A stretch of DNA of 64,000 bases from the NCBI GenBank assembly GCA_009996515.1, contig JAACZV010000003.1:62001-126000 (forward strand). The letters run 5' to 3'. The notes beneath the pieces were generated by a model. The model did not search any database. It saw only the letters and a list, made by a program, of their open reading frames with translations, and was not told the origin of the DNA. Below are positions 19,251 through 27,737 of the stretch, one piece after another; positions within the stretch are counted from its first letter, which is position 1; each line of letters starts with the position of its first letter. The translations under genes and the position numbers were made by a program. The DNA is from Comamonadaceae bacterium. Its GTDB lineage: Bacteria > Pseudomonadota > Gammaproteobacteria > Burkholderiales > Burkholderiaceae_C.

Positions 19251-20451
19251 TGCCAAGAAACCCGCCCTGATCCCGCTGGACGAGGCGCTGGCCCGGCTGC
19301 TGGCGCAGGCCCAGCCGCTGGCCGGGCGCGAGACGCTGGCCACCAGCGCCGCCGCCGGCCGCGTGCTGGCCGCCGATCTGGTCTCGCCCGTGGATGTGCC
19401 GCCCGCCGACAACTCGGCCATGGACGGCTATGCGCTGCGCGCGGCCGAGGCGGCGCTGGATCTGCCCGTCACGCAGCGCATTCCGGCCGGCAGCCTGCCG
19501 CGGCCGCTGCCGCCCGGCGAGGCCGCGCGCATCTTCACCGGCGCGCAGCTGCCGGCCGGCGCTGATGCGGTCGTCATGCAGGAGTTCACCGAACTGAGCG
19601 ACGAGCGCCTGCGCATCACGCAGCCGGTCAGCGCCGGCCAGCATGTGCGGCTGCGCGGCGAGGACGTGCGCGCCGGCAGCGTCGTGCTGCCGGCCGGCAC
19701 GCGGCTGGACGCCATCGCGCTGGGCCTGGCGGCCACGGCCGGGGCCGCCGAGCTGACCGTGAGTCGCCGCCCGCGCGTGGCGCTGTTCTCCACCGGCGAC
19801 GAGCTGGTCATGCCCGGCGAGCCGCTGCCGCCCGGCGCCATCTACAACTCCAACCGCTTCACGCTGCGTGCGCTGCTGGAAGGCCTGGGCTGCGAGGTCG
19901 TCGACCTGGGCATCGTGCCGGACAAGCTGGAGGCCACGCGCGCCGCGCTTCGCGAGGCGGCTTCCCGGGCCGACGTCATCCTGACCTCGGGCGGCGTGTC
20001 CGTCGGCGAGGAAGACCACCTGAGGCCGGCCGTCCAGGCCGAGGGCCGGCTGGACCTCTGGTCCATCGCCATCAAGCCGGGCAAGCCCTTCGCGTACGGC
20101 AAGGTCGGCGCGGCCCACTTCATCGGCCTGCCCGGCAACCCGGTGTCCAGCCTCGTGACCTTCCTGCTGCTGGTGCGGCCCTTCCTGCTGAAGCTGCAGG
20201 GCGCCACCCGCCTGGCCCCCCGGGGCTGCCGCATCGCCGCCGGCTTCGACTGGCCGCGGCCCGACAAGCGCCGCGAGTTCCTGCGCGTGCGCCTGGACGA
20301 GACGGGCGGCCTGGCCTTGTTCGCCAACCAGAGCAGCGGCGTGCTGACCTCGGCCTTCTGGGCCGACGGCCTGCTGGACAACCCCGCGGGCCAGGCCTTC
20401 GGCGCCGGCGACCTGGTGCGCTTCATCCCGTTCGCGGAGCTGCTGTCATGA
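19243..20451 (+). CDS. moeA: Molybdopterin molybdenumtransferase
   Basis: A 402-residue MoeA that inserts molybdate into adenylated molybdopterin. Visible are DNSAMDGYALR (the catalytic region), IFTGAQLPAGADAVVMQE, the MPT-binding TSGGVSVGEEDH and GLPGNPVSS. The length is normal. It overlaps thrC by eight bases and moaD by four (ATGA), so molybdenum cofactor genes ride on the threonine operon, as is usual in Burkholderiales. Confidence 0.95.
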   Translation: MSDAKKPALIPLDEALARLLAQAQPLAGRETLATSAAAGRVLAADLVSPVDVPPADNSAMDGYALRAAEAALDLPVTQRIPAGSLPRPLPPGEAARIFTGAQLPAGADAVVMQEFTELSDERLRITQPVSAGQHVRLRGEDVRAGSVVLPAGTRLDAIALGLAATAGAAELTVSRRPRVALFSTGDELVMPGEPLPPGAIYNSNRFTLRALLEGLGCEVVDLGIVPDKLEATRAALREAASRADVILTSGGVSVGEEDHLRPAVQAEGRLDLWSIAIKPGKPFAYGKVGAAHFIGLPGNPVSSLVTFLLLVRPFLLKLQGATRLAPRGCRIAAGFDWPRPDKRREFLRVRLDETGGLALFANQSSGVLTSAFWADGLLDNPAGQAFGAGDLVRFIPFAELLS

Positions 20452-20705
20452 GCATCACGGTGAAGCTGCGCTTCTTCGCGTCGCTGCGCGAGAAGCTGGG
20501 CGAGGGCGAGGCGCTGACGCTGCCCGAAGGCAGCACCGTCGCCTCGGCGCGCGAGGCCCTGCAGGCGCGCGGCGGCGTCCATGCCGAGGTGCTGGCCGGC
20601 GGCCGCGCCGTGCGTGCGGCGCTGAACCAGAAGATGTGTGCGGGGTCCGCCTTGCTGGCCGAGGGTGACGAGCTGGCCTTCTTCCCCCCGGTCACCGGCG
20701 GATGA
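20448..20705 (+). CDS. moaD: Molybdopterin synthase sulfur-carrier subunit
   Basis: An 85-residue ubiquitin-fold protein ending in the required Gly-Gly (84-85) that becomes the thiocarboxylate for molybdopterin synthesis. The pattern VKLRFFASLREKLG and the PPVTGG end are typical. Its partner MoaE is not next to it but 6.5 kb downstream at 27264, on the far side of the polyamine/membrane block. Its stop overlaps the speD start (ATGA). Confidence 0.93.
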   Translation: MSITVKLRFFASLREKLGEGEALTLPEGSTVASAREALQARGGVHAEVLAGGRAVRAALNQKMCAGSALLAEGDELAFFPPVTGG

Positions 20706-21067
20706 AGGGCCTGCACCTGACGGCCGATCTGCGCGGCTGTGATCCGGCCGCCGGTCGCATGTTCGATCCGGAGTTGCTGAGCCGCCTCTGCCGCGACGCG
20801 GTGGCGCGGTCCGGACTGACCGGCGTGGCCGAGCTGATGCACCGCTTCGGCCCGGTCGACGGCCAAAGCGGCGTTACGGGCGTCGTGCTGCTGGCCGAAT
20901 CGCATCTGGCCGTGCACACCTGGCCCGAGCTGGGCGCGGTGACGCTGGACGTCTATGTCTGCAACTATGGCGGCGACAACAGCGAGAAGGCGAGGACGCT
21001 GCTGGAGGCGCTGATCGACCTCTTCGAGCCTGCCGAGGTCAGCCGCCAGCAGCTGCTCAGAGGCTGA
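20702..21067 (+). CDS. speD: S-adenosylmethionine decarboxylase, pyruvoyl type
   Basis: A 121-residue class 1B AdoMetDC, the small form that self-cleaves to make a pyruvoyl group. The cleavage site is Glu66-Ser67-His68 in LLAESHLAVHTWPE; Ser67 would become pyruvoyl. His72 and the catalytic Cys87 (VYVCNYG) are also conserved. The product, decarboxylated AdoMet, is the aminopropyl donor for spermidine. It starts inside the moaD stop (ATGA), and its 3' end overlaps the convergent FAD oxidoreductase gene by 11 bases. The nearest user of its product is the spermidine-synthase-like gene at 22604-24157. Confidence 0.9.
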   Translation: MKGLHLTADLRGCDPAAGRMFDPELLSRLCRDAVARSGLTGVAELMHRFGPVDGQSGVTGVVLLAESHLAVHTWPELGAVTLDVYVCNYGGDNSEKARTLLEALIDLFEPAEVSRQQLLRG

Positions 21068-22607
21068 GCCGGCCCGCCGCCTGCACGCCGGCCGTGTAGG
21101 CTTCCTCGAACACCGAATAGCCGGCCAGGTCCGCATGCGCGAAGACGACGCGGCCGCGCGCCTCGTTCAGCGCCGCCAGCGCGGCCGAGCCGCGCAGCCC
21201 CGGCGTCGGGATGCTCATCGCATGGCCGAAGCGGCACAGGTCGATGCGCTCCAGCTTGGCGGGCAGGTCGGGGTGGGTCTGGGCCAGCTCGTCGACGACG
21301 ATGCGGGCCCAGTCCTGCCAGGGCCGCTGCAGCAGCTCGCCGCGCCGGGCCGCCGGCAGCGCGAGGTAGGCGGTCAGCAGCGGCGGGCGCGGCGTCGGGT
21401 CCAGCGCCTGGTGGCGCGCGTCGACATAGCCCAGCGCCGCGCCGCCGTAGCGCACGTTGTCCCAGGCCGGCGGTGCGCCGGGGCGGGTCAGCAGCGGCTC
21501 GCGCAGCAGCAGGTTGGCGGTCAGCCAGGGGGCGTAGCTCAGCCGGCCGGCGGCGGCGCGCAGCGCCTCGGGGGGAGCCGCCAGCAGGCGGTTGGCGATG
21601 AACAGCGGCGTGGCCATGACGACGGCGCCGGCCTGCCAGCGCTCGGGGGTGCCGGCGGCCTCGTTCCAGGCCAGCAGCTCGATGCCATGCCTGTGCTCCG
21701 TCACGCGCAGCACGCTGCGGCCGAGGTGGATGCGTTCGCGCAGCGGCTCCGCCATGCGGGCGCTGAGCCAGCCGTTGCCCTCGGCCCAGGTCAGCACCGG
21801 CTCGCGCTCGGCCGTCTCGTCGCCCGGCGCGTGGAAGCCGTGGCGGCTGGCGAAGTAATGCAGGCCGGCCCAGGCCGAGACGGTGGCGGCGGCGGCGCCG
21901 AAGTCGTCGCGGCAGCAATAGTCCAGGTACCAGCGCAGCCGCGCGTCGCGCAAGCCCTGGCCGTCCAGCCAGGCGGCAAAGGGCTGGGCGTCCAGCGCGG
22001 CATGGCCCGGCGTCCAGCGCGCCCGGCGCGTGGGCATCGCAAAGCCCAGCTCGCGCTGGGCCAGGGTGAGCAGGCCCGCGAAGCGCCGGTACTGCGCCAG
22101 CGTGGCGGCATCCTCGGCCGGCGGCAGCAGGCCCTCGTGCCATTCGCCGGCCATGAAGAGGCGCTCCTGCGGGCTGTGGCAGAGCTGGCGCTCATCCCAT
22201 TCGGTGCGGCCGAGATGGGAGCGGGCCAGGCCCAGCTCATGCAGCAGCTGGCTGACTTCGTGCGCCTGCTCGCCGGGCAGCGGCAGGTAATGGGCGCCCA
22301 GCGGGCAGGGCGAGCCGGCGACGCTGTGGCCGCGGCTGTTGCCGCCGGCCTGGTCTTCCAGATCCAGCAGCGCGAGGTCGTCGATGCCGCGCCGGGCCAG
22401 CTCGCGCGCGCAGGCCAGGCCGGCGATGCCGGCGCCGACGATGAGCACGCCGGTCTTCTTCAGCGGGCCGCCGGCCGCCGGCAGCGCGCCGCGCAGACGG
22501 TGGCCGCGCTCCGCATGCGTGCCCACCCAGCCGCCCTGCAGCGCGGGCGTGTCCGGCGTGCAACCCGCCGCCGCGAGGCCGGCCAGCAGCAGCTCGCGAC
22601 GCCTCAA
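21057..22607 (-). CDS. FAD-dependent amine-oxidase-like protein, predicted Tat lipoprotein
   Basis: A 516-residue protein. The TTG at 22607 is used because it overlaps the stop of the upstream spermidine-synthase-like gene (TTGA) and opens directly into a Tat-like lipoprotein signal MRRRELLLAGLAAAGC (lipobox Cys16). The dinucleotide-binding motif VGAGIAGLACAREL follows at about 57-70, then an acidic ribose-binding segment LLDLEDQAGG. The C-terminal FAVFAHADLAG-type segment (VVFAHADLAGYSVFEEAY) resembles the flavin-binding end of monoamine/polyamine oxidases. An envelope-located oxidation of an amine, perhaps an aminopropylated product, is an inference from context. It is the last gene of the minus-strand operon. 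Confidence 0.8.
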   Translation of the reverse strand: MRRRELLLAGLAAAGCTPDTPALQGGWVGTHAERGHRLRGALPAAGGPLKKTGVLIVGAGIAGLACARELARRGIDDLALLDLEDQAGGNSRGHSVAGSPCPLGAHYLPLPGEQAHEVSQLLHELGLARSHLGRTEWDERQLCHSPQERLFMAGEWHEGLLPPAEDAATLAQYRRFAGLLTLAQRELGFAMPTRRARWTPGHAALDAQPFAAWLDGQGLRDARLRWYLDYCCRDDFGAAAATVSAWAGLHYFASRHGFHAPGDETAEREPVLTWAEGNGWLSARMAEPLRERIHLGRSVLRVTEHRHGIELLAWNEAAGTPERWQAGAVVMATPLFIANRLLAAPPEALRAAAGRLSYAPWLTANLLLREPLLTRPGAPPAWDNVRYGGAALGYVDARHQALDPTPRPPLLTAYLALPAARRGELLQRPWQDWARIVVDELAQTHPDLPAKLERIDLCRFGHAMSIPTPGLRGSAALAALNEARGRVVFAHADLAGYSVFEEAYTAGVQAAGRLSL

Positions 22608-24157
22608 TGCACCTTGCCCCATTCGGCCTCGAACACCTGCACCAGCACCTGGTTGGACAGCCGGTTCACCTCGGTCGGCACGCGGGCCATGTCGGGCGGG
22701 AAGTCCAGCAGGGCCGGCAGACTGCCGGGGCTGATGAAGCGCAGGCCCGGCGGGAACTGCGTGGGCAGCCGGAAGGGCCGGCGCGACGCCAGCACGAAGC
22801 CCCATTCGCCGAACGACGGCACATGGGCGTGGTAGGGCGTGGCCGTCAGCCCGGTGGACTCGATGGTGGTGACGACGGTCCAGAAGCTGCGCCGCGCGAT
22901 CAGCGGCGAGGTGGTCTGCACGACGGCATAGCCGCCCGCGCTCAGGTGCTGGTCCACCAGCTCGTAGAAGCTGGCCGTGTACAGCTTGCCCAGCGCGAAG
23001 TTGGAGGGGTCGGGGAAGTCGATGACGATGACGTCGAAGCTGTCCTGCTGCCGCTCCAGCCAGCCGAAGGCATCGGCGTTGACGATGCGCAGCTTAGGGC
23101 TGGACAACGCATGGCCGTTCAGCGCCGCCAGCCGCGTGTTGTCGCGGAACAGCGTGGTCATCAGCGGGTCCAGCTCCACCAGCGTGACCTGCTCGACGCT
23201 GGCGTACTTGAGCACCTCGCGCACGGCCATGCCGTCGCCGCCGCCCAGCACCAGCACGCGCTTCGGAGCGCCGTGCGCCGCCATCGCGGGCTGCACCAGC
23301 GCCTCGTGGTAACGGTACTCGTCGCGGGAGTGGAACTGCAGGTTGCCGTTCAGGAACAGCCGCGTGCCGGCGTGGCCGTCGGTGACGACGATGCGCTGGT
23401 AGGCGCTGCTCTGCTTGAAGACGATCTGCTCGCCGTAGAAGCGGTCCTCGGCCCAGGTCGTCAAGCGATCGGCGCCGGCCAGCGCCGCAAGCAGCAGCGC
23501 CGCCGACAGCGCGCAGGCGGCCGTGTGGGCCCGCCGGGCGCGCAGCTCGGCGCGGAACAGCCACAGCGCCCAGATCGCGACGGCCACGTTCAGCAGGCCG
23601 AAGGCCAGGCCGGTGCGCACCAGGCCCAGCTGCGGCACCAGCACCAGCGGGAAGGCCAGCGCGACCAGCAGGGCGCCGAGGTAGTCGAAGGTCAGCACCT
23701 GGGAGACCAGGTCCTTCAAGCCGTAGCGGGCGCTGAAGTGGCGCTTCAGGATGCGCATGACCAGCGGGATCTCCAGCCCCACCAGCGTGCCGACGAGCAG
23801 CACCAGCGCATACAGCAGCACGCGAAACGGCGCTGCCTCGCCCGGCGGCAGCAGGCTGTGCACGATGAACAGCGTCGCCGGCATCAGCCCGCCGACGACG
23901 CCCACCAGCAGCTCCACCTGCAGGAACACGCCGACGATCTGCCGCTCGACGAAGCGCGACAGCCAGGAGCCCAGCCCCATCGCGAACAGGTAGACGCCGA
24001 TGACGGTGGAGAACTGCAGCACCGAGTCGCCGAGCAGATAGCTGGCCAGGGCCCCGGCCGCCAGCTCGTAGACCAGGCCGCAGGCGGCGATGACGAAGAC
24101 GCTGGCCAGCAGCAGCAGCTCGGCCAGCGTGGCGCGCGCGCGCGGCGGCGCGCTCAC
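22604..24157 (-). CDS. Membrane-anchored spermidine synthase-like aminopropyltransferase
   Basis: A 517-residue protein with two parts. Residues 12-230 contain about six or seven membrane helices (for example LLLLASVFVIAACGLVYELA, VLLYALVLLVGTLVG). Residues about 240-480 form a spermidine synthase fold: GGGDGMAVREVL at 305-316 binds (decarboxylated) AdoMet, VELD ends at 330, and VIDFPDPSNFALGKLY at about 378-393 supplies the catalytic-type Asp residues. Soluble SpeE lacks the membrane part. The acceptor may be a polyamine at the membrane or another amine. It sits in an operon with DUF350, DUF4178 and SPFH genes and faces speD. Confidence 0.87.
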   Translation of the reverse strand: MSAPPRARATLAELLLLASVFVIAACGLVYELAAGALASYLLGDSVLQFSTVIGVYLFAMGLGSWLSRFVERQIVGVFLQVELLVGVVGGLMPATLFIVHSLLPPGEAAPFRVLLYALVLLVGTLVGLEIPLVMRILKRHFSARYGLKDLVSQVLTFDYLGALLVALAFPLVLVPQLGLVRTGLAFGLLNVAVAIWALWLFRAELRARRAHTAACALSAALLLAALAGADRLTTWAEDRFYGEQIVFKQSSAYQRIVVTDGHAGTRLFLNGNLQFHSRDEYRYHEALVQPAMAAHGAPKRVLVLGGGDGMAVREVLKYASVEQVTLVELDPLMTTLFRDNTRLAALNGHALSSPKLRIVNADAFGWLERQQDSFDVIVIDFPDPSNFALGKLYTASFYELVDQHLSAGGYAVVQTTSPLIARRSFWTVVTTIESTGLTATPYHAHVPSFGEWGFVLASRRPFRLPTQFPPGLRFISPGSLPALLDFPPDMARVPTEVNRLSNQVLVQVFEAEWGKVH

Positions 24158-24292
24158 GGCTGGACGGGCGCGGCGGCGCAGGGCCGGGTCCGCGGCGCGC
24201 GGCGGCGGGTGGGCAAGAGCAGGGAGGCCATGGGGCGGCAGTCTAGAAGCACGGAGGCCGGGGCGGGCGCCGCCGGCCCGGCAGGGGCGGCC

Positions 24293-24514
24293 TCAGCCGT
24301 GAATGGCCGCCGCGACGATCTGGCCTATGGACAGGCACATCGCGCCGACGACGATGGCCAGCGCCACGTTCTTGTGCTCGACGATCTCCTCCCACAGCTT
24401 GTAGGGGGTGAGCTTGTCCACGATGACGAAGGACACCCAGAAAATGATGACGCCGATGATGGCGTACATCACCGAGCCGAGGATGATTTCGGGCCTGAGC
24501 CAGTCTAGGGTCAT
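24293..24514 (-). CDS. DUF350 family small membrane protein
   Basis: A 73-residue protein with two membrane helices (about 10-32 and 48-70, IILGSVMYAIIGVIIFWVSF and NVALAIVVGAMCLSIGQIVA). The segment between them, VDKLTPYKLWEEIVEHKN, carries the conserved DUF350 pattern. E. coli YjfL belongs to the same family and lies in the yjfIJKLMC cluster with a PspA-like protein and a glutathionylspermidine-synthase-like protein, so the link of DUF350 with polyamine chemistry and membrane-stress proteins recurs. A 135-base gap separates it from the spermidine-synthase-like gene. Confidence 0.85.
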   Translation of the reverse strand: MTLDWLRPEIILGSVMYAIIGVIIFWVSFVIVDKLTPYKLWEEIVEHKNVALAIVVGAMCLSIGQIVAAAIHG

Positions 24515-24538
24515 GGTGCGTGCTCCTGTGGGGTCGTC

Positions 24539-26122
24539 TTACTTGTGGCCGCCGCCACCGCTGCTGTAGCCGCCGTAGCTGCCGCCGCTGTTGCCGAGGT
24601 AGACGCCGCTGCCGCGTGCGCTGGCGCGGCATTGGCGGTATTCGTTGCTGTTCTCGCCGAAGTTGGCCTTGTACTGCTCGCAGTCATCGCTGGAGCAGGC
24701 GCGCAGCAGCGCGAACAGCAGCACGATGAGGAACAGGCCCACGACGATGTTGCGCAGCAGCGTGGCGCCGCTGTTCTTGAAGGCCGAGGCGTCGCGCGTG
24801 AACTGCGCGGCCGGTGCCGTCAGGCCGAAGGCCTTCTGCACCGTGTCGGCGGGCAGCGTGCGGCCGCCGCTCCAGGTGACCTCGGGGCCTTGGCTCTCGC
24901 GGCTGAGCAGGTGCTGCCCGTCACGGGTGGCGTAGTCGGCCACGCGCACGCGGTCGTCCAGCCGCACGGGCCAGTAAAACTCGCCCAGCACCCGCGTGGT
25001 CTTGGCGTCGTAGGTCCAGCGCTGCGCGTAGGCTCGGTCCTGCCAGGTCACGCCGTCGCGGGCGGGCGCGGGCGCGCCGGTCAGCGTGCGCACCAGGCTC
25101 CAGCCCTCGTTGGTGTCGACCAGGAAGGCGAATCCCGCCAGCCGGTTGTAGAGCAGGTATTCGCGCCAGAAGCTCTGCTCGTCGTCGCCGTCCTCGGGCA
25201 GGTCGCAGCGCTCCTGGTAGCCCACCACCTGCCAGGGCAGCGGCTTGTCGCCCTCCACGGCCAGCGTGCCGGTGCGGCCCAGCGGGATCAGCGGCGGCAG
25301 GCCGCGCTCCTGCGCGGTGAAGCCCAGGGCCTTGGCGTCGCCCTCGGGTAAGTCCACCACGGCCTGGCACTGGGCGCAGACCATGCTCTTGGTCTCGCTG
25401 AGCTTGGGCTCGAGCGGCGCGCCGCAGCTGGGGCAGGCGATCGATCTGCCCTTGAACTTGGCCTCGGCGATGGATTCGCCCTCGGCCGTCGTGCGCAGGC
25501 CTTGCAGGGCCAGCTCGGCCAGCTGCACGCCGCGGCCCACCGACCAGACCGGTGGCCCGTCGGCGCCGTACTCCAGCGTGCCGACCTCGTCCTGGGCGTT
25601 GCGCAGCTCGACGACGCGGCCGGGCTGCGGCGGGCGGGGCAGCTCGCCCTCGGCGGCGCGCACGGCGGCCTGCACGACGGCGGCCACCTGCCAGCGCTGG
25701 CCGGCCAGCGTCAGCGGCAGCCCCGGCTGCGGGTCCGGCGGCGGCGCGTCGGCCAGCGGTGCCTCCAGGCTGAGGACGAACTGGCCGTTGTCCTCGCTGA
25801 GCCAGCCCACGCGTTGCTGTTCGCCGGCCTCGAACAGCAGATGCCATTCGTTCCAGTTACCCAGCTCCGAGCCGCGCTGCACGCGGCCGACGACGGCAAA
25901 GCCGCTGCCCATCCAGCGCCCGGTGGCGCCCAGCTGCAGCGGCGAGTAGTCCTCGAAGATCTCGGCGCTCTGGCCGATGCGATTCAGGGTCTCGCCGTCA
26001 CGCAGCAGCGTGCTGCGGCAGAAGCCGCAGACGGCCGTGGACGACGCCGCGCTGGCGAACTCGACCGGCGCGCCGCAGTTGGGGCAGGCCGCGCGCCAGC
26101 GGCGCTGGGCCTGCTCAGCCAA
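24539..26122 (-). CDS. DUF4178 protein with two zinc ribbons and a C-terminal membrane anchor
   Basis: A 527-residue protein starting with TTG at 26122 inside the end of the SPFH gene (8-base overlap). It opens with a zinc ribbon (CPNCGAP at about 13-19, CGFC near 32-35). A DUF4178 domain follows (FEDYSPLQLGATGRWMGSGF, WNEWHLLFEAGEQQRVGWLS), then a second ribbon (CPSCGAPLE, CAQC) and a second DUF4178 copy (YQERCDLPEDGDDEQSFWRE, YNRLAGFAFLVDTNEGWSLV). A single membrane helix (about IVVGLFLIVLLFALL) and a Gly/Ser/Tyr-rich tail end it. The family has no known activity; coupling to SPFH and DUF350 genes suggests a membrane-surface role. Confidence 0.82.
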   Translation of the reverse strand: MAEQAQRRWRAACPNCGAPVEFASAASSTAVCGFCRSTLLRDGETLNRIGQSAEIFEDYSPLQLGATGRWMGSGFAVVGRVQRGSELGNWNEWHLLFEAGEQQRVGWLSEDNGQFVLSLEAPLADAPPPDPQPGLPLTLAGQRWQVAAVVQAAVRAAEGELPRPPQPGRVVELRNAQDEVGTLEYGADGPPVWSVGRGVQLAELALQGLRTTAEGESIAEAKFKGRSIACPSCGAPLEPKLSETKSMVCAQCQAVVDLPEGDAKALGFTAQERGLPPLIPLGRTGTLAVEGDKPLPWQVVGYQERCDLPEDGDDEQSFWREYLLYNRLAGFAFLVDTNEGWSLVRTLTGAPAPARDGVTWQDRAYAQRWTYDAKTTRVLGEFYWPVRLDDRVRVADYATRDGQHLLSRESQGPEVTWSGGRTLPADTVQKAFGLTAPAAQFTRDASAFKNSGATLLRNIVVGLFLIVLLFALLRACSSDDCEQYKANFGENSNEYRQCRASARGSGVYLGNSGGSYGGYSSGGGGHK

Positions 26123-27152
26123 GCTTCTTCAGGAGGTCCGCTTTTTTGGCGGCGAATTCCTCGTCGGTCAGGATGCCCTTGGCCTTGAGGTCGCCGAGCT
26201 TCTCCAGCAGGGCCACGATGTCGTCGGGCCTGCTGGCCGCCGGCGCGGGCGCCGCGGCGCCGACGCCGGCCAGGCCCTGGCCCAGCGTCTGTGCCAGCGT
26301 CTGGCCCAGCGCCACGCCGGCACCCAGGCCTATGGCCTCGCCGGCGATGCCGCTGCCGCTGCCGCCGCCCGCGGCGCCCTTGGCCATCTCGGGCAGGGCC
26401 TGGGCGGCCTGGTACTGCATGAACTGGCCCATGTTCTGGCCGATGATGCCCATGCCGATGCGCTGGTCGAGGATCTTCTGCAGCTCCTCGGGCAGCGAGA
26501 CGTTCTGCATCGTCACCGACAGCAGTTCCAGGCCCAGCGCAGCGAAGGCGGGGGCGGTGGCGTTCTTCAGCGCGGCGGCGAACTCGATCTGGTTGGCGGC
26601 CAGGTCCAGGAAGGGCGTGCCGCTGCCGGCCACGGCGTCGCTGATGTGCTGCAGCATCAGGCCGCGCAGCTGGCCTTCCAGGTCCTGCACCGTGTAGCGC
26701 TCGCGGGTGCCGGAGATCTGGCTGTGGAAGGTCTTGGCGTCCTGGATGCGGTAGGCGTAGTTGCCGAAGGCGCGCAGGCGCACGGCGCCGAAGTCCTTGT
26801 CGCGGATGGAGATGGGCTGGCTGGTGCCCCAGCGCTGGTCGATCTGCTGGCGGGTGCTGAAGAAGTAGACGTCGCTCTTGAAGGGCGACTCGAACAGCTT
26901 GTCCCAGTTCTTCAGATAGGTCAGCACCGGCAGCGTCTGGGTGGTGAGCTTGTGGGTGCCGGGGCCGAACACGTCGGCCACCTGGCCTTCGTTGACGAAG
27001 ACGGCGACCTGGGATTCGCGCACCACCAGCTGCCCGCCGTTCTGGATTTCCATGCCGGCCATCGGGAAGCGCCAGGCCAGCGTGCCGTCGCCGTCTTCCG
27101 TCCACTGGATGACGTCTATGAACTGTTTCTTGATGAAATCCATCAGGGCCAT
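26115..27152 (-). CDS. SPFH-domain protein with C-terminal SHOCT motif
   Basis: A 345-residue protein. The SPFH/band-7-like domain occupies about residues 20-230 (LVVRESQVAVFVNEGQVADV, FGPGTHKLTTQTLPVL). A helical, Gln/Met-rich stretch follows (NMGQFMQYQAAQALPEM), then a Gly/Ala/Pro linker, then a SHOCT helix pair at about 308-345 (LEKLGDLKAKGILTDEEFA). There is no N-terminal membrane helix, so it probably binds the membrane face or partner proteins. It is the first gene of the minus-strand operon that includes DUF4178, DUF350, SpeE-like and FAD genes, and its promoter region is shared with divergent moaE. Confidence 0.85.
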   Translation of the reverse strand: MALMDFIKKQFIDVIQWTEDGDGTLAWRFPMAGMEIQNGGQLVVRESQVAVFVNEGQVADVFGPGTHKLTTQTLPVLTYLKNWDKLFESPFKSDVYFFSTRQQIDQRWGTSQPISIRDKDFGAVRLRAFGNYAYRIQDAKTFHSQISGTRERYTVQDLEGQLRGLMLQHISDAVAGSGTPFLDLAANQIEFAAALKNATAPAFAALGLELLSVTMQNVSLPEELQKILDQRIGMGIIGQNMGQFMQYQAAQALPEMAKGAAGGGSGSGIAGEAIGLGAGVALGQTLAQTLGQGLAGVGAAAPAPAASRPDDIVALLEKLGDLKAKGILTDEEFAAKKADLLKKLG

Positions 27153-27263: not shown

Positions 27264-27737
27264 ATGAGCAGAGTTTGCATCCAGTCCCAGGACTTTGACC
27301 TCAGTACGGAAACGGCCGCCTTGCGGGCGGCTGACGGCGGCGTCGGCGCCGTGGTCGCCTTCGTCGGCACGGTGCGCGAGCGTGACGGCGGCGTGGCCGT
27401 GTCGGCGCTGGAGCTGGAGCATTACCCGGGCATGACGGAGGCCGCCATTGAGGCCATGGTGGACCAGGCCTTCGCCCGCTTCGACATCCGTGCCGCCCGC
27501 GTCATCCACCGGGTGGGCCTGCTGCAGGCGCGCGAGCAGATCGTGGCGGTGCTGGTCGCCAGCGCCCACCGCGGCCAGGCCTTCCAGGCCTGCGAATTTC
27601 TGATGGACTACCTGAAGACCCAAGCACCGTTCTGGAAGAAGGAGTACGGGCCGGGCGGGGCGCGCTGGGTGGACGCCCGCGTGGCCGACGACGAGGCGCT
27701 GGCGCGCTGGGGCATTGCGGGAGGGAACGCCTCTTGA
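27264..27737 (+). CDS. moaE: Molybdopterin synthase catalytic subunit
   Basis: A 157-residue MoaE that, with MoaD thiocarboxylate, converts cyclic pyranopterin monophosphate to molybdopterin. Visible are GAVVAFVGTVRERD, LELEHYPGMTEAAIE, ASAHRGQAF and the catalytic Lys region TQAPFWKKEYG. The start ATG at 27264 gives the expected MSRVCIQSQDFDL. It is separated from moaD by the polyamine/SPFH block, which breaks the usual moaD-moaE adjacency, and its stop overlaps the crcB start (TTGA). Confidence 0.93.
   Translation: MSRVCIQSQDFDLSTETAALRAADGGVGAVVAFVGTVRERDGGVAVSALELEHYPGMTEAAIEAMVDQAFARFDIRAARVIHRVGLLQAREQIVAVLVASAHRGQAFQACEFLMDYLKTQAPFWKKEYGPGGARWVDARVADDEALARWGIAGGNAS

What the first reader, a model, noticed from the sequence alone, without database searches (positions are those of the whole stretch)
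20702..27152. Polyamine and membrane-protein block inserted between moaD and moaE
moaD (20448-20705) and moaE (27264-27737) are normally adjacent in the Burkholderiales hom-thrC-moeA-moaD-moaE-clpB run. Here six genes separate them: speD on the plus strand, and on the minus strand SPFH-SHOCT, DUF4178, DUF350, a membrane-embedded spermidine-synthase-like protein and a Tat-lipoprotein FAD oxidoreductase. Stop/start overlaps (SPFH/DUF4178, SpeE-like/FAD TTGA) show one operon. AdoMetDC supplies an aminopropyl donor, the SpeE-like protein would use it at the membrane, and the FAD enzyme could oxidise the product outside. E. coli yjfIJKLMC (PspA-like YjfJ, DUF350 YjfL, glutathionylspermidine-synthase-like YjfC) shows the same theme. 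A membrane-stress system built on polyamine modification is my inference.
Basis: partly seen in the sequence, partly recalled or inferred. Interest (0 to 1): 0.75.

Follow-up and report, generated by a model that had tools for sequence, protein, structure and literature searches.

The report
Polyamine tagging of an envelope tail
A portable block of six bacterial genes appears to build a polyamine-type tag on the outer side of the inner membrane, probably on a lysine at the very end of a flexible protein tail; the gene family was known, but the outward-facing enzyme and the lysine tail seem not to have been noticed.

Summary
The block is real: speD, then on the other strand SPFH-SHOCT, DUF4178, DUF350, a 7-TM/spermidine-synthase fusion (SpdMFS) and a FAD enzyme with a Tat-lipoprotein-like start, between moaD and moaE. 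It is a conserved portable operon; the moaD/moaE site is a trait of one clade. Two things appear new. (1) SpdMFS has seven TM helices, a positive-inside pattern in 132 of 132 sequences and an aminopropyltransferase domain almost without cysteine (4 in 37,613 residues; SpeE 97 in 6,556), so its catalytic domain should face the periplasm. (2) A membrane-anchored or exported protein with a Gly/Ser-rich tail ending in lysine accompanies SpdMFS in 124 of 132 loci and, in a partly post-hoc check, 19 of 22 later ones. Here it is DUF4178's own end (...GGSYGGYSSGGGGHK). Partner tails of peptide-spermidine ligases end in Gly-Gly (5 read, a sixth not found). Best model: SpeD makes dcAdoMet and SpdMFS aminopropylates the terminal lysine outside the membrane. 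No substrate has been shown experimentally.

The parts
20702..21067 (+). speD, class 1b AdoMet decarboxylase (121 aa), start overlaps the moaD stop
   Evidence: PF02675 91 bits, TIGR03330 above cut-off; ESH..HTWPE and Cys aligned with T. maritima enzyme; the only AdoMet_dc match in the genome
21057..22607 (-). FAD amine-oxidase-fold protein with twin-Arg lipoprotein-like start; TTG start overlaps SpdMFS stop; 3' end overlaps speD by 11 bp
   Evidence: PF01593 88 bits; twin Arg before a lipobox-like Cys in 26 of 32 relatives printed, judged by eye; AF2 pLDDT 91
22604..24157 (-). SpdMFS: 7-TM domain fused to aminopropyltransferase (spermidine-synthase) domain
   Evidence: NF002956 676 bits; AF2 pLDDT 86.5, pTM 0.69, 7 helices then SpdSyn fold; conserved site residues
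23477..24127 (-). seven transmembrane helices (residues 11-227) of SpdMFS
22607..23428 (-). aminopropyltransferase domain (residues 244-517), Cys-free, predicted periplasmic
24293..24514 (-). DUF350 membrane protein, single two-helix repeat (73 aa)
   Evidence: PF03994 55 bits; two hydrophobic peaks
24539..26122 (-). DUF4178 protein: two Zn-ribbon-like Cys clusters, two DUF4178 stretches, one TM, Gly/Ser/Tyr tail ending His-Lys
   Evidence: PF13785 103 bits, 2 stretches; TM 455-473 and Cys positions
24542..24586 (-). C-terminal tail GGSYGGYSSGGGGHK, proposed aminopropyl acceptor (terminal Lys)
   Evidence: HK end in 101 of 107 DUF4178 proteins >=440 aa; only GG.HK-stop pattern match in the genome
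26115..27152 (-). SPFH/Band_7_1 protein with SHOCT C-terminus
   Evidence: PF13421 253 bits, PF09851 36 bits
20448..20705 (+). moaD, left flank
   Evidence: TIGR01682 above cut-off
27264..27737 (+). moaE, right flank
   Evidence: PF02391 123 bits

Best explanation
The block is a complete 'outside polyamination' operon. SpeD decarboxylates AdoMet in the cytoplasm. SpdMFS carries its spermidine-synthase domain on the periplasmic side of a seven-helix domain, which may also pass dcAdoMet across the membrane. The domain transfers the aminopropyl group to an amine outside. The most likely acceptor is the C-terminal lysine of the flexible Gly/Ser/Tyr tail that the DUF4178 protein projects into the periplasm: a lysine side chain is a butylamine like putrescine, the usual acceptor. 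The product would be Ne-(3-aminopropyl)lysine or a longer chain, a hypusine/silaffin-like mark. SPFH-SHOCT, the DUF4178 body and DUF350 would form the membrane platform that presents the tail. The FAD enzyme, present only in some variants, may oxidise or trim the product. Shown here: genes, conservation, co-occurrence, intact aminopropyl-transfer site, topology signals, Lys tails. Inferred: dcAdoMet export, the acceptor, the FAD step, the role in envelope stability.
For: Donor and enzyme: by genus, AdoMetDC in 13 of 15 SpdMFS genera against 4 of 26 others (p 1e-5); own genome has one AdoMetDC, an OKR-type amino-acid decarboxylase, and besides SpdMFS only a 32-bit spermine-synthase match. Of 155 SpdMFS sequences, 154 have G[GA]GDG (the truncated L255 does not) and all 154 have D330, D362, D380, D383; Y283 in 153. 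Outside location: 7 helices; K+R 10.7 on even-side loops against 2.0, even > odd in 132 of 132 sequences, loop limits set by me; C-domain Cys 4 in 37,613 residues, none in 128 of 132, against 97 in 6,556, none in 0 of 25 SpeE matches, two of them short pieces. Lys tail: 124 of 132 loci, and all 8 misses lack DUF4178 in the fetched stretch; 19 of 22 later loci including another phylum, Gemmatirosa; a scan ignoring the last residue gives 25 of 30 Lys ends against 9 of 216 other ORFs. Where a full-length DUF4178 lacks the tail (6 of 107), a free small TM protein in the locus has it, 6 of 6. Tail switch: partner tails of peptide-spermidine ligases end GG in the 5 read; in a sixth locus no partner was found.
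Against: No modified peptide has been seen. A periplasmic dcAdoMet-using enzyme needs an export route, which is not shown. L234, L240 and L241 have SpdMFS without a tail in range (L234 at a contig edge; the other two in unrelated surroundings, judged by eye). Lys is also the end of Braun's lipoprotein (recalled), so the tail could serve peptidoglycan attachment. Cys depletion and charge bias are indirect; 6 of 22 later homologs have one or two Cys in the last 285 residues. The automated tail test gave 18 hits, of which I judged nine real and nine noise, and missed L253 and the whole distant subfamily, recognised only after I widened the listing. Distant carriers have further Lys near the end, so the terminal one is not the sole amine there. 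Most loci are Burkholderiales, not independent, and at least five genomes occur twice. YjfC shows no export signal by eye, so the parallel with it is chemical, not topological.
Confidence: 0.5

Rival explanations
1. SpdMFS aminopropylates a lipid head group or another envelope amine; the Lys tail is only a targeting or assembly tag of the complex. Donor and outside location as in the best model.
For: Enzyme is membrane-embedded; [quoted passage not shown] DUF350 and SPFH families are in the block.
Against: Does not explain why the last residue is Lys on tails of unlike carriers (DUF4178 fusion, ~50-aa TM proteins, lipoproteins) nor the GG/Lys switch.
Confidence: 0.2
2. The Lys tail is a Braun-lipoprotein-like anchor joined to peptidoglycan by L,D-transpeptidases; polyamine enzymes do something separate or regulate that link.
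For: Lpp ends in Lys (recalled); carriers look membrane-anchored or lipoproteins with long flexible linkers.
Against: The own genome has the GG.HK-stop pattern once; the ligase variant has GG instead of Lys. Tails away from SpdMFS loci were not sought otherwise, and transpeptidases were not tested.
Confidence: 0.13
3. SpdMFS makes spermidine or another free polyamine at or across the membrane (export-coupled synthesis), and the FAD enzyme is a polyamine oxidase.
For: NCBIfam name 'polyamine aminopropyltransferase', 676 bits, and intact active site; PF01593 match.
Against: Li et al. 2019 report, as I recall the abstract (paper not held), that spermidine is absent in such bacteria and that the fusion or its domain does not complement a SpdSyn deletion. 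No conserved Lys in the FAD family.
Confidence: 0.12
4. The C-domain is cytoplasmic and acts on a cytoplasmic substrate; Cys depletion has another cause.
For: dcAdoMet is made in the cytoplasm and I know of no exporter for it.
Against: Seven helices plus charge bias in 132 of 132 and near-absence of Cys.
Confidence: 0.12

Closest known systems
PspA-CesT/Tir and band-7 polyamine operons (Ravi et al. 2024, PMC11237479; passages read)
   Same: 7TM-spermidine-synthase fusion, DUF350, DUF4178; a variant with band-7 + SHOCT, AdoMet decarboxylase and polyamine oxidase; link to membrane stress and aminopropylation of other substrates
   Different: 'periplasm' and 'lysine' occur 0 times in its main text by the find tool; neither the outward enzyme domain nor the Lys-ended tail is in the passages seen; it does list a lipoprotein (Ctha_1186 domain), which may be the tail carrier of some variants
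AdoMetDC / MFS-SpdSyn fusion / DUF350 clusters (Li et al. 2019, Biochem J 476:2579; not held, abstract recalled, citation seen)
   Same: Same donor enzyme, fusion and DUF350; proposal that a substrate other than putrescine is aminopropylated
E. coli YgiC/YjfC peptide-spermidine ligase operons (RefSeq names; Pederick 2023, title only in reference lists)
   Same: yjf operon: PspA, DUF2170, DUF350 partners; envelope protein with Gly/Ser-rich tail next to a polyamine enzyme
   Different: ATP-grasp ligase instead of aminopropyltransferase; tail ends Gly-Gly instead of Lys
Fungal NHMT, 7TM + SpdSyn-like methyltransferase (PMC10349129, passages read)
   Same: N-terminal 7TM plus C-terminal SpdSyn-fold domain modifying a terminal residue of secreted proteins
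   Different: Methylates N-terminal His with AdoMet; lacks the acidic residue of GxG(D/E)G that SpdMFS keeps
Hypusine and silaffin polyamine modification (PMC6356823 passages; PMC12270671 passages)
   Same: Polyamine units attached to a protein
   Different: Eukaryotic proteins (eIF5A, diatom silaffin); no sequence relation tested

Membership tests
AdoMetDC / MFS-SpdSyn / DUF350 operons (Li 2019; Ravi 2024 group with DUF4178) | MFS/7TM-spermidine synthase fusion | tested here: met
   NF002956 676 bits, NF037959 55 bits, AF2 7 helices + SpdSyn
AdoMetDC / MFS-SpdSyn / DUF350 operons (Li 2019; Ravi 2024 group with DUF4178) | AdoMet decarboxylase of class 1b | tested here: met
   PF02675, TIGR03330; ESH/H/Cys aligned
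AdoMetDC / MFS-SpdSyn / DUF350 operons (Li 2019; Ravi 2024 group with DUF4178) | DUF350 and DUF4178 proteins | tested here: met
   PF03994 55 bits, PF13785 103 bits
AdoMetDC / MFS-SpdSyn / DUF350 operons (Li 2019; Ravi 2024 group with DUF4178) | PspA-CesT/Tir dyad, or its replacement by band-7 + SHOCT | tested here: met
   Replacement form here; dyad form confirmed in L188
AdoMetDC / MFS-SpdSyn / DUF350 operons (Li 2019; Ravi 2024 group with DUF4178) | Does not make spermidine | not testable with these tools
   Needs polyamine profiling or complementation
Canonical spermidine synthase (SpeE) | TIGR00417 above cut-off, soluble protein | tested here: not met
   139 bits, cut-off 249.6; seven TM helices
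Canonical spermidine synthase (SpeE) | Aminopropyl-transfer site (GxG[DE]G, Asp pair, Tyr) | tested here: met
   154 of 155 have the motif; Asp pair 154 of 154, Tyr 153 of 154
Flavin polyamine oxidase | Amino_oxidase fold | tested here: met
   PF01593 88 bits; structure library search did not run
Flavin polyamine oxidase | Conserved active-site Lys (recalled hallmark of MAO/PAO/LSD1) | tested here: not met
   No Lys among invariant or >=90% columns of 52 sequences
Peptide-spermidine ligase system (YjfC/YgiC) | ATP-grasp ligase and GG-ended DUF1190 partner | tested here: not met
   Neither among the family matches of the block; tail ends HK
Mobile genetic element | Integrase, transposase or repeats at the block ends | not tested
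   The six genes identified between moaD and moaE include none; no dedicated scan for repeats or mobile genes

The most novel reading that the evidence does not exclude
A bacterial post-translational polyamination made outside the cytoplasm: a membrane-anchored aminopropyltransferase with its catalytic half in the periplasm builds aminopropyl units on the C-terminal lysine of a dedicated envelope tail, and a sister system uses a ligase on a Gly-Gly tail, so that the last residue of the tail matches the chemistry of the enzyme.
Probability: 0.5. Interest if true: 0.9.

Novelty: new variant of a known kind. Interest (0 to 1): 0.75.

Why it matters
The substrate of the widespread membrane spermidine-synthase fusions has been open since at least 2019. 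A Lys-ended tail in each main variant that I met (not in every locus), and Gly-Gly where the enzyme is a ligase, names a concrete acceptor that one mass-spectrometry experiment can test. If right, it adds a protein modification, an extracytoplasmic use of decarboxylated AdoMet, and a chemical link between polyamines and the PspA/SPFH envelope-stress systems. It would also correct the common label 'polyamine aminopropyltransferase' for these genes.

Tried and rejected
Insertion as a recent mobile element: in 17 of 17 genus loci with both flanks the block sits at the same place, so it is old in that clade.

SpeD as a neofunctionalised ornithine or arginine decarboxylase: unlikely; motif ESH..HTWPE in 48 of 56 relatives by a simple pattern (the other 8 were not matched by it), and the genome has an OKR-type decarboxylase (criterion from PMC10407285, passages).

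FAD enzyme as the tail's maker: rejected because L186-L189 have the tail without it.

Extra genes between DUF350 and SpdMFS in genus relatives (M48-peptidase-like, YciI-like, TolB-like; named by eye, no family search) vary and were left out of the core.

Pattern search was mis-designed (one residue short) and is ignored; one search replaces it.

Family searches of ten tail carriers gave no informative family.

Not in print: my claim that the tail and the outward domain are undescribed rests on paper searches and passages of PMC11237479; Li 2019 and Pederick 2023 were not readable here.
Full report
WHAT IS THERE. On the plus strand moeA, moaD and speD overlap start-to-stop. On the minus strand run SPFH-SHOCT, DUF4178, DUF350, SpdMFS (a seven-helix membrane domain fused to a spermidine-synthase domain) and a FAD enzyme with a twin-arginine lipoprotein-like start; moaE follows on the plus strand. 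SPFH/DUF4178 and SpdMFS/FAD overlap, and the 3' ends of FAD and speD overlap by 11 bp.

IS IT A BLOCK. Yes. In 17 of 17 genus loci with both flanks fetched and in two more genera the block lies between moaD-speD and moaE. By equal contig lengths four of these genomes are Pelomonas or Roseateles records. In 7 of 7 family genomes fetched with the block elsewhere, moaD and moaE are 0.05-2.1 kb apart, 6 of them with about 1 kb or more and other ORFs between. Across 62 named loci longer than 17 kb, FAD accompanies SpdMFS in 61, DUF350 in 57, DUF4178 in 56, SPFH in 50 and speD in 21. Over the same 60 genomes (own plus 59 relatives), full or contig-cut SpdMFS and DUF4178 are in the same 34. AdoMetDC is in 32 of those 34 and in 4 of the other 26, each beside a stand-alone SpeE-type gene. 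Only three SpdMFS genomes (G023, G029, G034) also have such a gene; the remaining PF01564 matches are weak. One genome (G035) has only SpdMFS fragments and neither DUF4178 nor AdoMetDC, which looks like joint loss. Counted by genus, AdoMetDC is in 13 of 15 against 4 of 26 (p 1e-5), DUF4178 in 15 of 15 against 0 of 26.

WHAT WAS KNOWN. Ravi et al. 2024 (PMC11237479, passages) describe operons with a 7TM-spermidine-synthase fusion, DUF350, DUF4178 and a lipoprotein, a band-7 + SHOCT variant with AdoMet decarboxylase and polyamine oxidase, and suggest polyamine sensing or aminopropylation of other substrates. They cite Li et al. 2019, whose paper is not held. From memory of its abstract, such AdoMetDCs are active, spermidine is absent and the fusion does not complement a spermidine-synthase deletion.

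THE ENZYME FACES OUTWARD. AlphaFold2 (51 sequences, pLDDT 86.5, pTM 0.69) gives seven membrane helices (11-42, 45-69, 74-102, 108-141, 147-177, 179-200, 208-227), then the spermidine-synthase fold from residue 244. With loop limits set by me, Lys+Arg average 10.7 on the N-terminus side against 2.0 on the other, in that direction in 132 of 132 sequences (window plus 131), so the C-terminal domain should be outside. It carries 4 Cys in 37,613 residues (none in 128 of 132), the seven-helix part 266 in 31,000. Twenty-five SpeE matches from the phylum carry 97 in 6,556 and none is Cys-free (two are short pieces). Of 22 later full-length homologs, 16 have no Cys in the last 285 residues and 6 have one or two. 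The aminopropyl site is intact: 154 of 155 sequences have G[GA]GDG (the truncated L255 lacks it), and of those 154 all have D330, D362, D380 and D383, and 153 have Y283 (compared with 13 of the 25 SpeE matches, the rest dropped by my motif rule). A fungal 7TM + SpdSyn-fold enzyme that methylates the N-terminus of secreted proteins is a precedent for the architecture (PMC10349129, passages); it lacks the acidic residue that binds decarboxylated AdoMet, which SpdMFS keeps.

THE LYSINE TAIL. The window's DUF4178 protein ends, after its single TM, in ...GGSYGGYSSGGGGHK. Of 107 DUF4178 proteins of 440 aa or more, 101 end in HK. In the six others (L090-L093, L182, L183) a separate 49-63 aa single-TM ORF in the locus ends in HK. 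Over 132 SpdMFS loci, 124 have such a tail: 105 fused to DUF4178, 17 small proteins, and the larger L185 and L191 carriers, which I found by reading on (the automatic hit in L185 was noise). The 8 without lack DUF4178 in the fetched stretch. At least five genomes occur twice among these loci (for example L069/L102 and L174/L200). Of 105 fused tails, 95 have no other Lys in the last 30 residues.

TEST ON NEW LOCI. After forming the idea I fetched 23 further loci. One SpdMFS is truncated (L255). Of the other 22, 19 have a Lys-ended tail, among them Gemmatirosa (another phylum), Tritonibacter, Ensifer, Novosphingobium (an annotated 48-aa 'hypothetical protein'), Burkholderia arboris and Alteromonas (a 510-aa lipoprotein). 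This test was not fully blind: my first automatic criterion gave 18 hits, of which I judged nine to be real tails and nine noise. The tenth close relative (L253) and nine of eleven distant ones (311-351 aa, lipobox by eye, ending RGK or GGK) were seen only when I listed all Lys-ended neighbours. L234, L240 and L241 have none. Some distant tails hold further Lys. A scan that ignores the last residue, with composition limits set after I had seen tails, gives in 40 system loci 30 Gly/Ser-tailed ORFs with a hydrophobic stretch, 25 ending in Lys; the other five look like noise. In 62 control loci, about half as many bases, it gives 3, none ending in Lys. Other ORFs of at least 100 aa in the L182-L201 loci end in Lys in 9 of 216 cases, at least two of these nine being tail carriers (L185, L191); small TM, Gly/Ser/Ala/Thr-rich ORFs in the 80 named loci, the DUF4178 tails left out, end in Lys in 2 of 82. 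In the own genome the GG.HK-stop pattern occurs once, at this tail.

THE SWITCH. E. coli yjfIJKLMC has PspA, DUF2170 and DUF350, as some SpdMFS loci do (DUF2170 confirmed in L185), but has YjfC, which RefSeq calls a peptide--spermidine ligase. The partners upstream of such ligases end in Gly-Gly in the 5 read: YgiB, YjfM, and those of Rhizobium, Klebsiella and Proteus; in Photobacterium (L260) my simple rule found no partner. The YgiB, Klebsiella and Proteus ones resemble one another, so these are not five independent cases. A ligase needs a carboxylate, an aminopropyltransferase an amine, and the tails end accordingly.

MECHANISM. SpeD makes dcAdoMet. SpdMFS uses it outside, either after export by its own membrane half or by an unknown route. 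The terminal lysine, a butylamine like putrescine, receives one or more aminopropyl groups. SPFH-SHOCT and the cytoplasmic DUF4178 body would hold the complex at the membrane. The FAD enzyme (model pLDDT 91) could act on the product; no Lys is invariant or >=90% conserved in 52 relatives, so I would not call it a polyamine oxidase. My confidence by step: outward domain about 0.8, terminal Lys as acceptor about 0.55, FAD acting on that product about 0.3, envelope stability as the role about 0.4.

RIVALS. Lipid or other envelope acceptor, Braun-type peptidoglycan attachment of the Lys tail, free polyamine synthesis at the membrane, and a cytoplasmic domain are weighed in their sections. None explains both the last-residue conservation on unlike carriers and the Lys/Gly-Gly switch, but none is excluded by experiment.

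VERDICT. The orientation of the enzyme and the Lys-ended tail are, as far as my searches show, undescribed, and make the substrate question directly testable.

Noticed in passing
L257:12388-13026 and L258:1745-2416 (E. coli yjfM, ygiB), L259, L261, L262: Partners of peptide-spermidine ligases end in Gly-Gly on Gly/Ser-rich tails (5 read; none found in L260); the C-terminus may be the ligase's substrate.
   Followed up: partly
window 20702-21067: speD overlaps moaD by ATGA; in seven relatives it starts about 2-5 bp after moaD. Whether AdoMetDC is co-regulated with molybdopterin synthase is unknown.
   Followed up: partly
window 21057-21067: The convergent speD and FAD genes overlap by 11 bp at their 3' ends.
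   Followed up: no
L062:9590-11323, L071:3214-10563, L074:9548-10910: Genus relatives carry varying extra genes inside the block (by eye M48-peptidase-like, YciI-like, TolB-like, a TonB-receptor-like ORF); the window has the compact form.
   Followed up: partly
G035:C79:13024-13463: Remnants of SpdMFS in a genome that also lacks DUF4178 and AdoMetDC: likely decay of the whole system.
   Followed up: partly
L253:9527-10633: In Alteromonas a protein annotated as toxic anion resistance protein sits in the operon where others have PspA or SPFH.
   Followed up: no
L190:10461-11171, L195:10252-11076: Uncharacterised ORFs upstream of SPFH in two loci of another class; the second matches DUF6694 weakly.
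   Followed up: no
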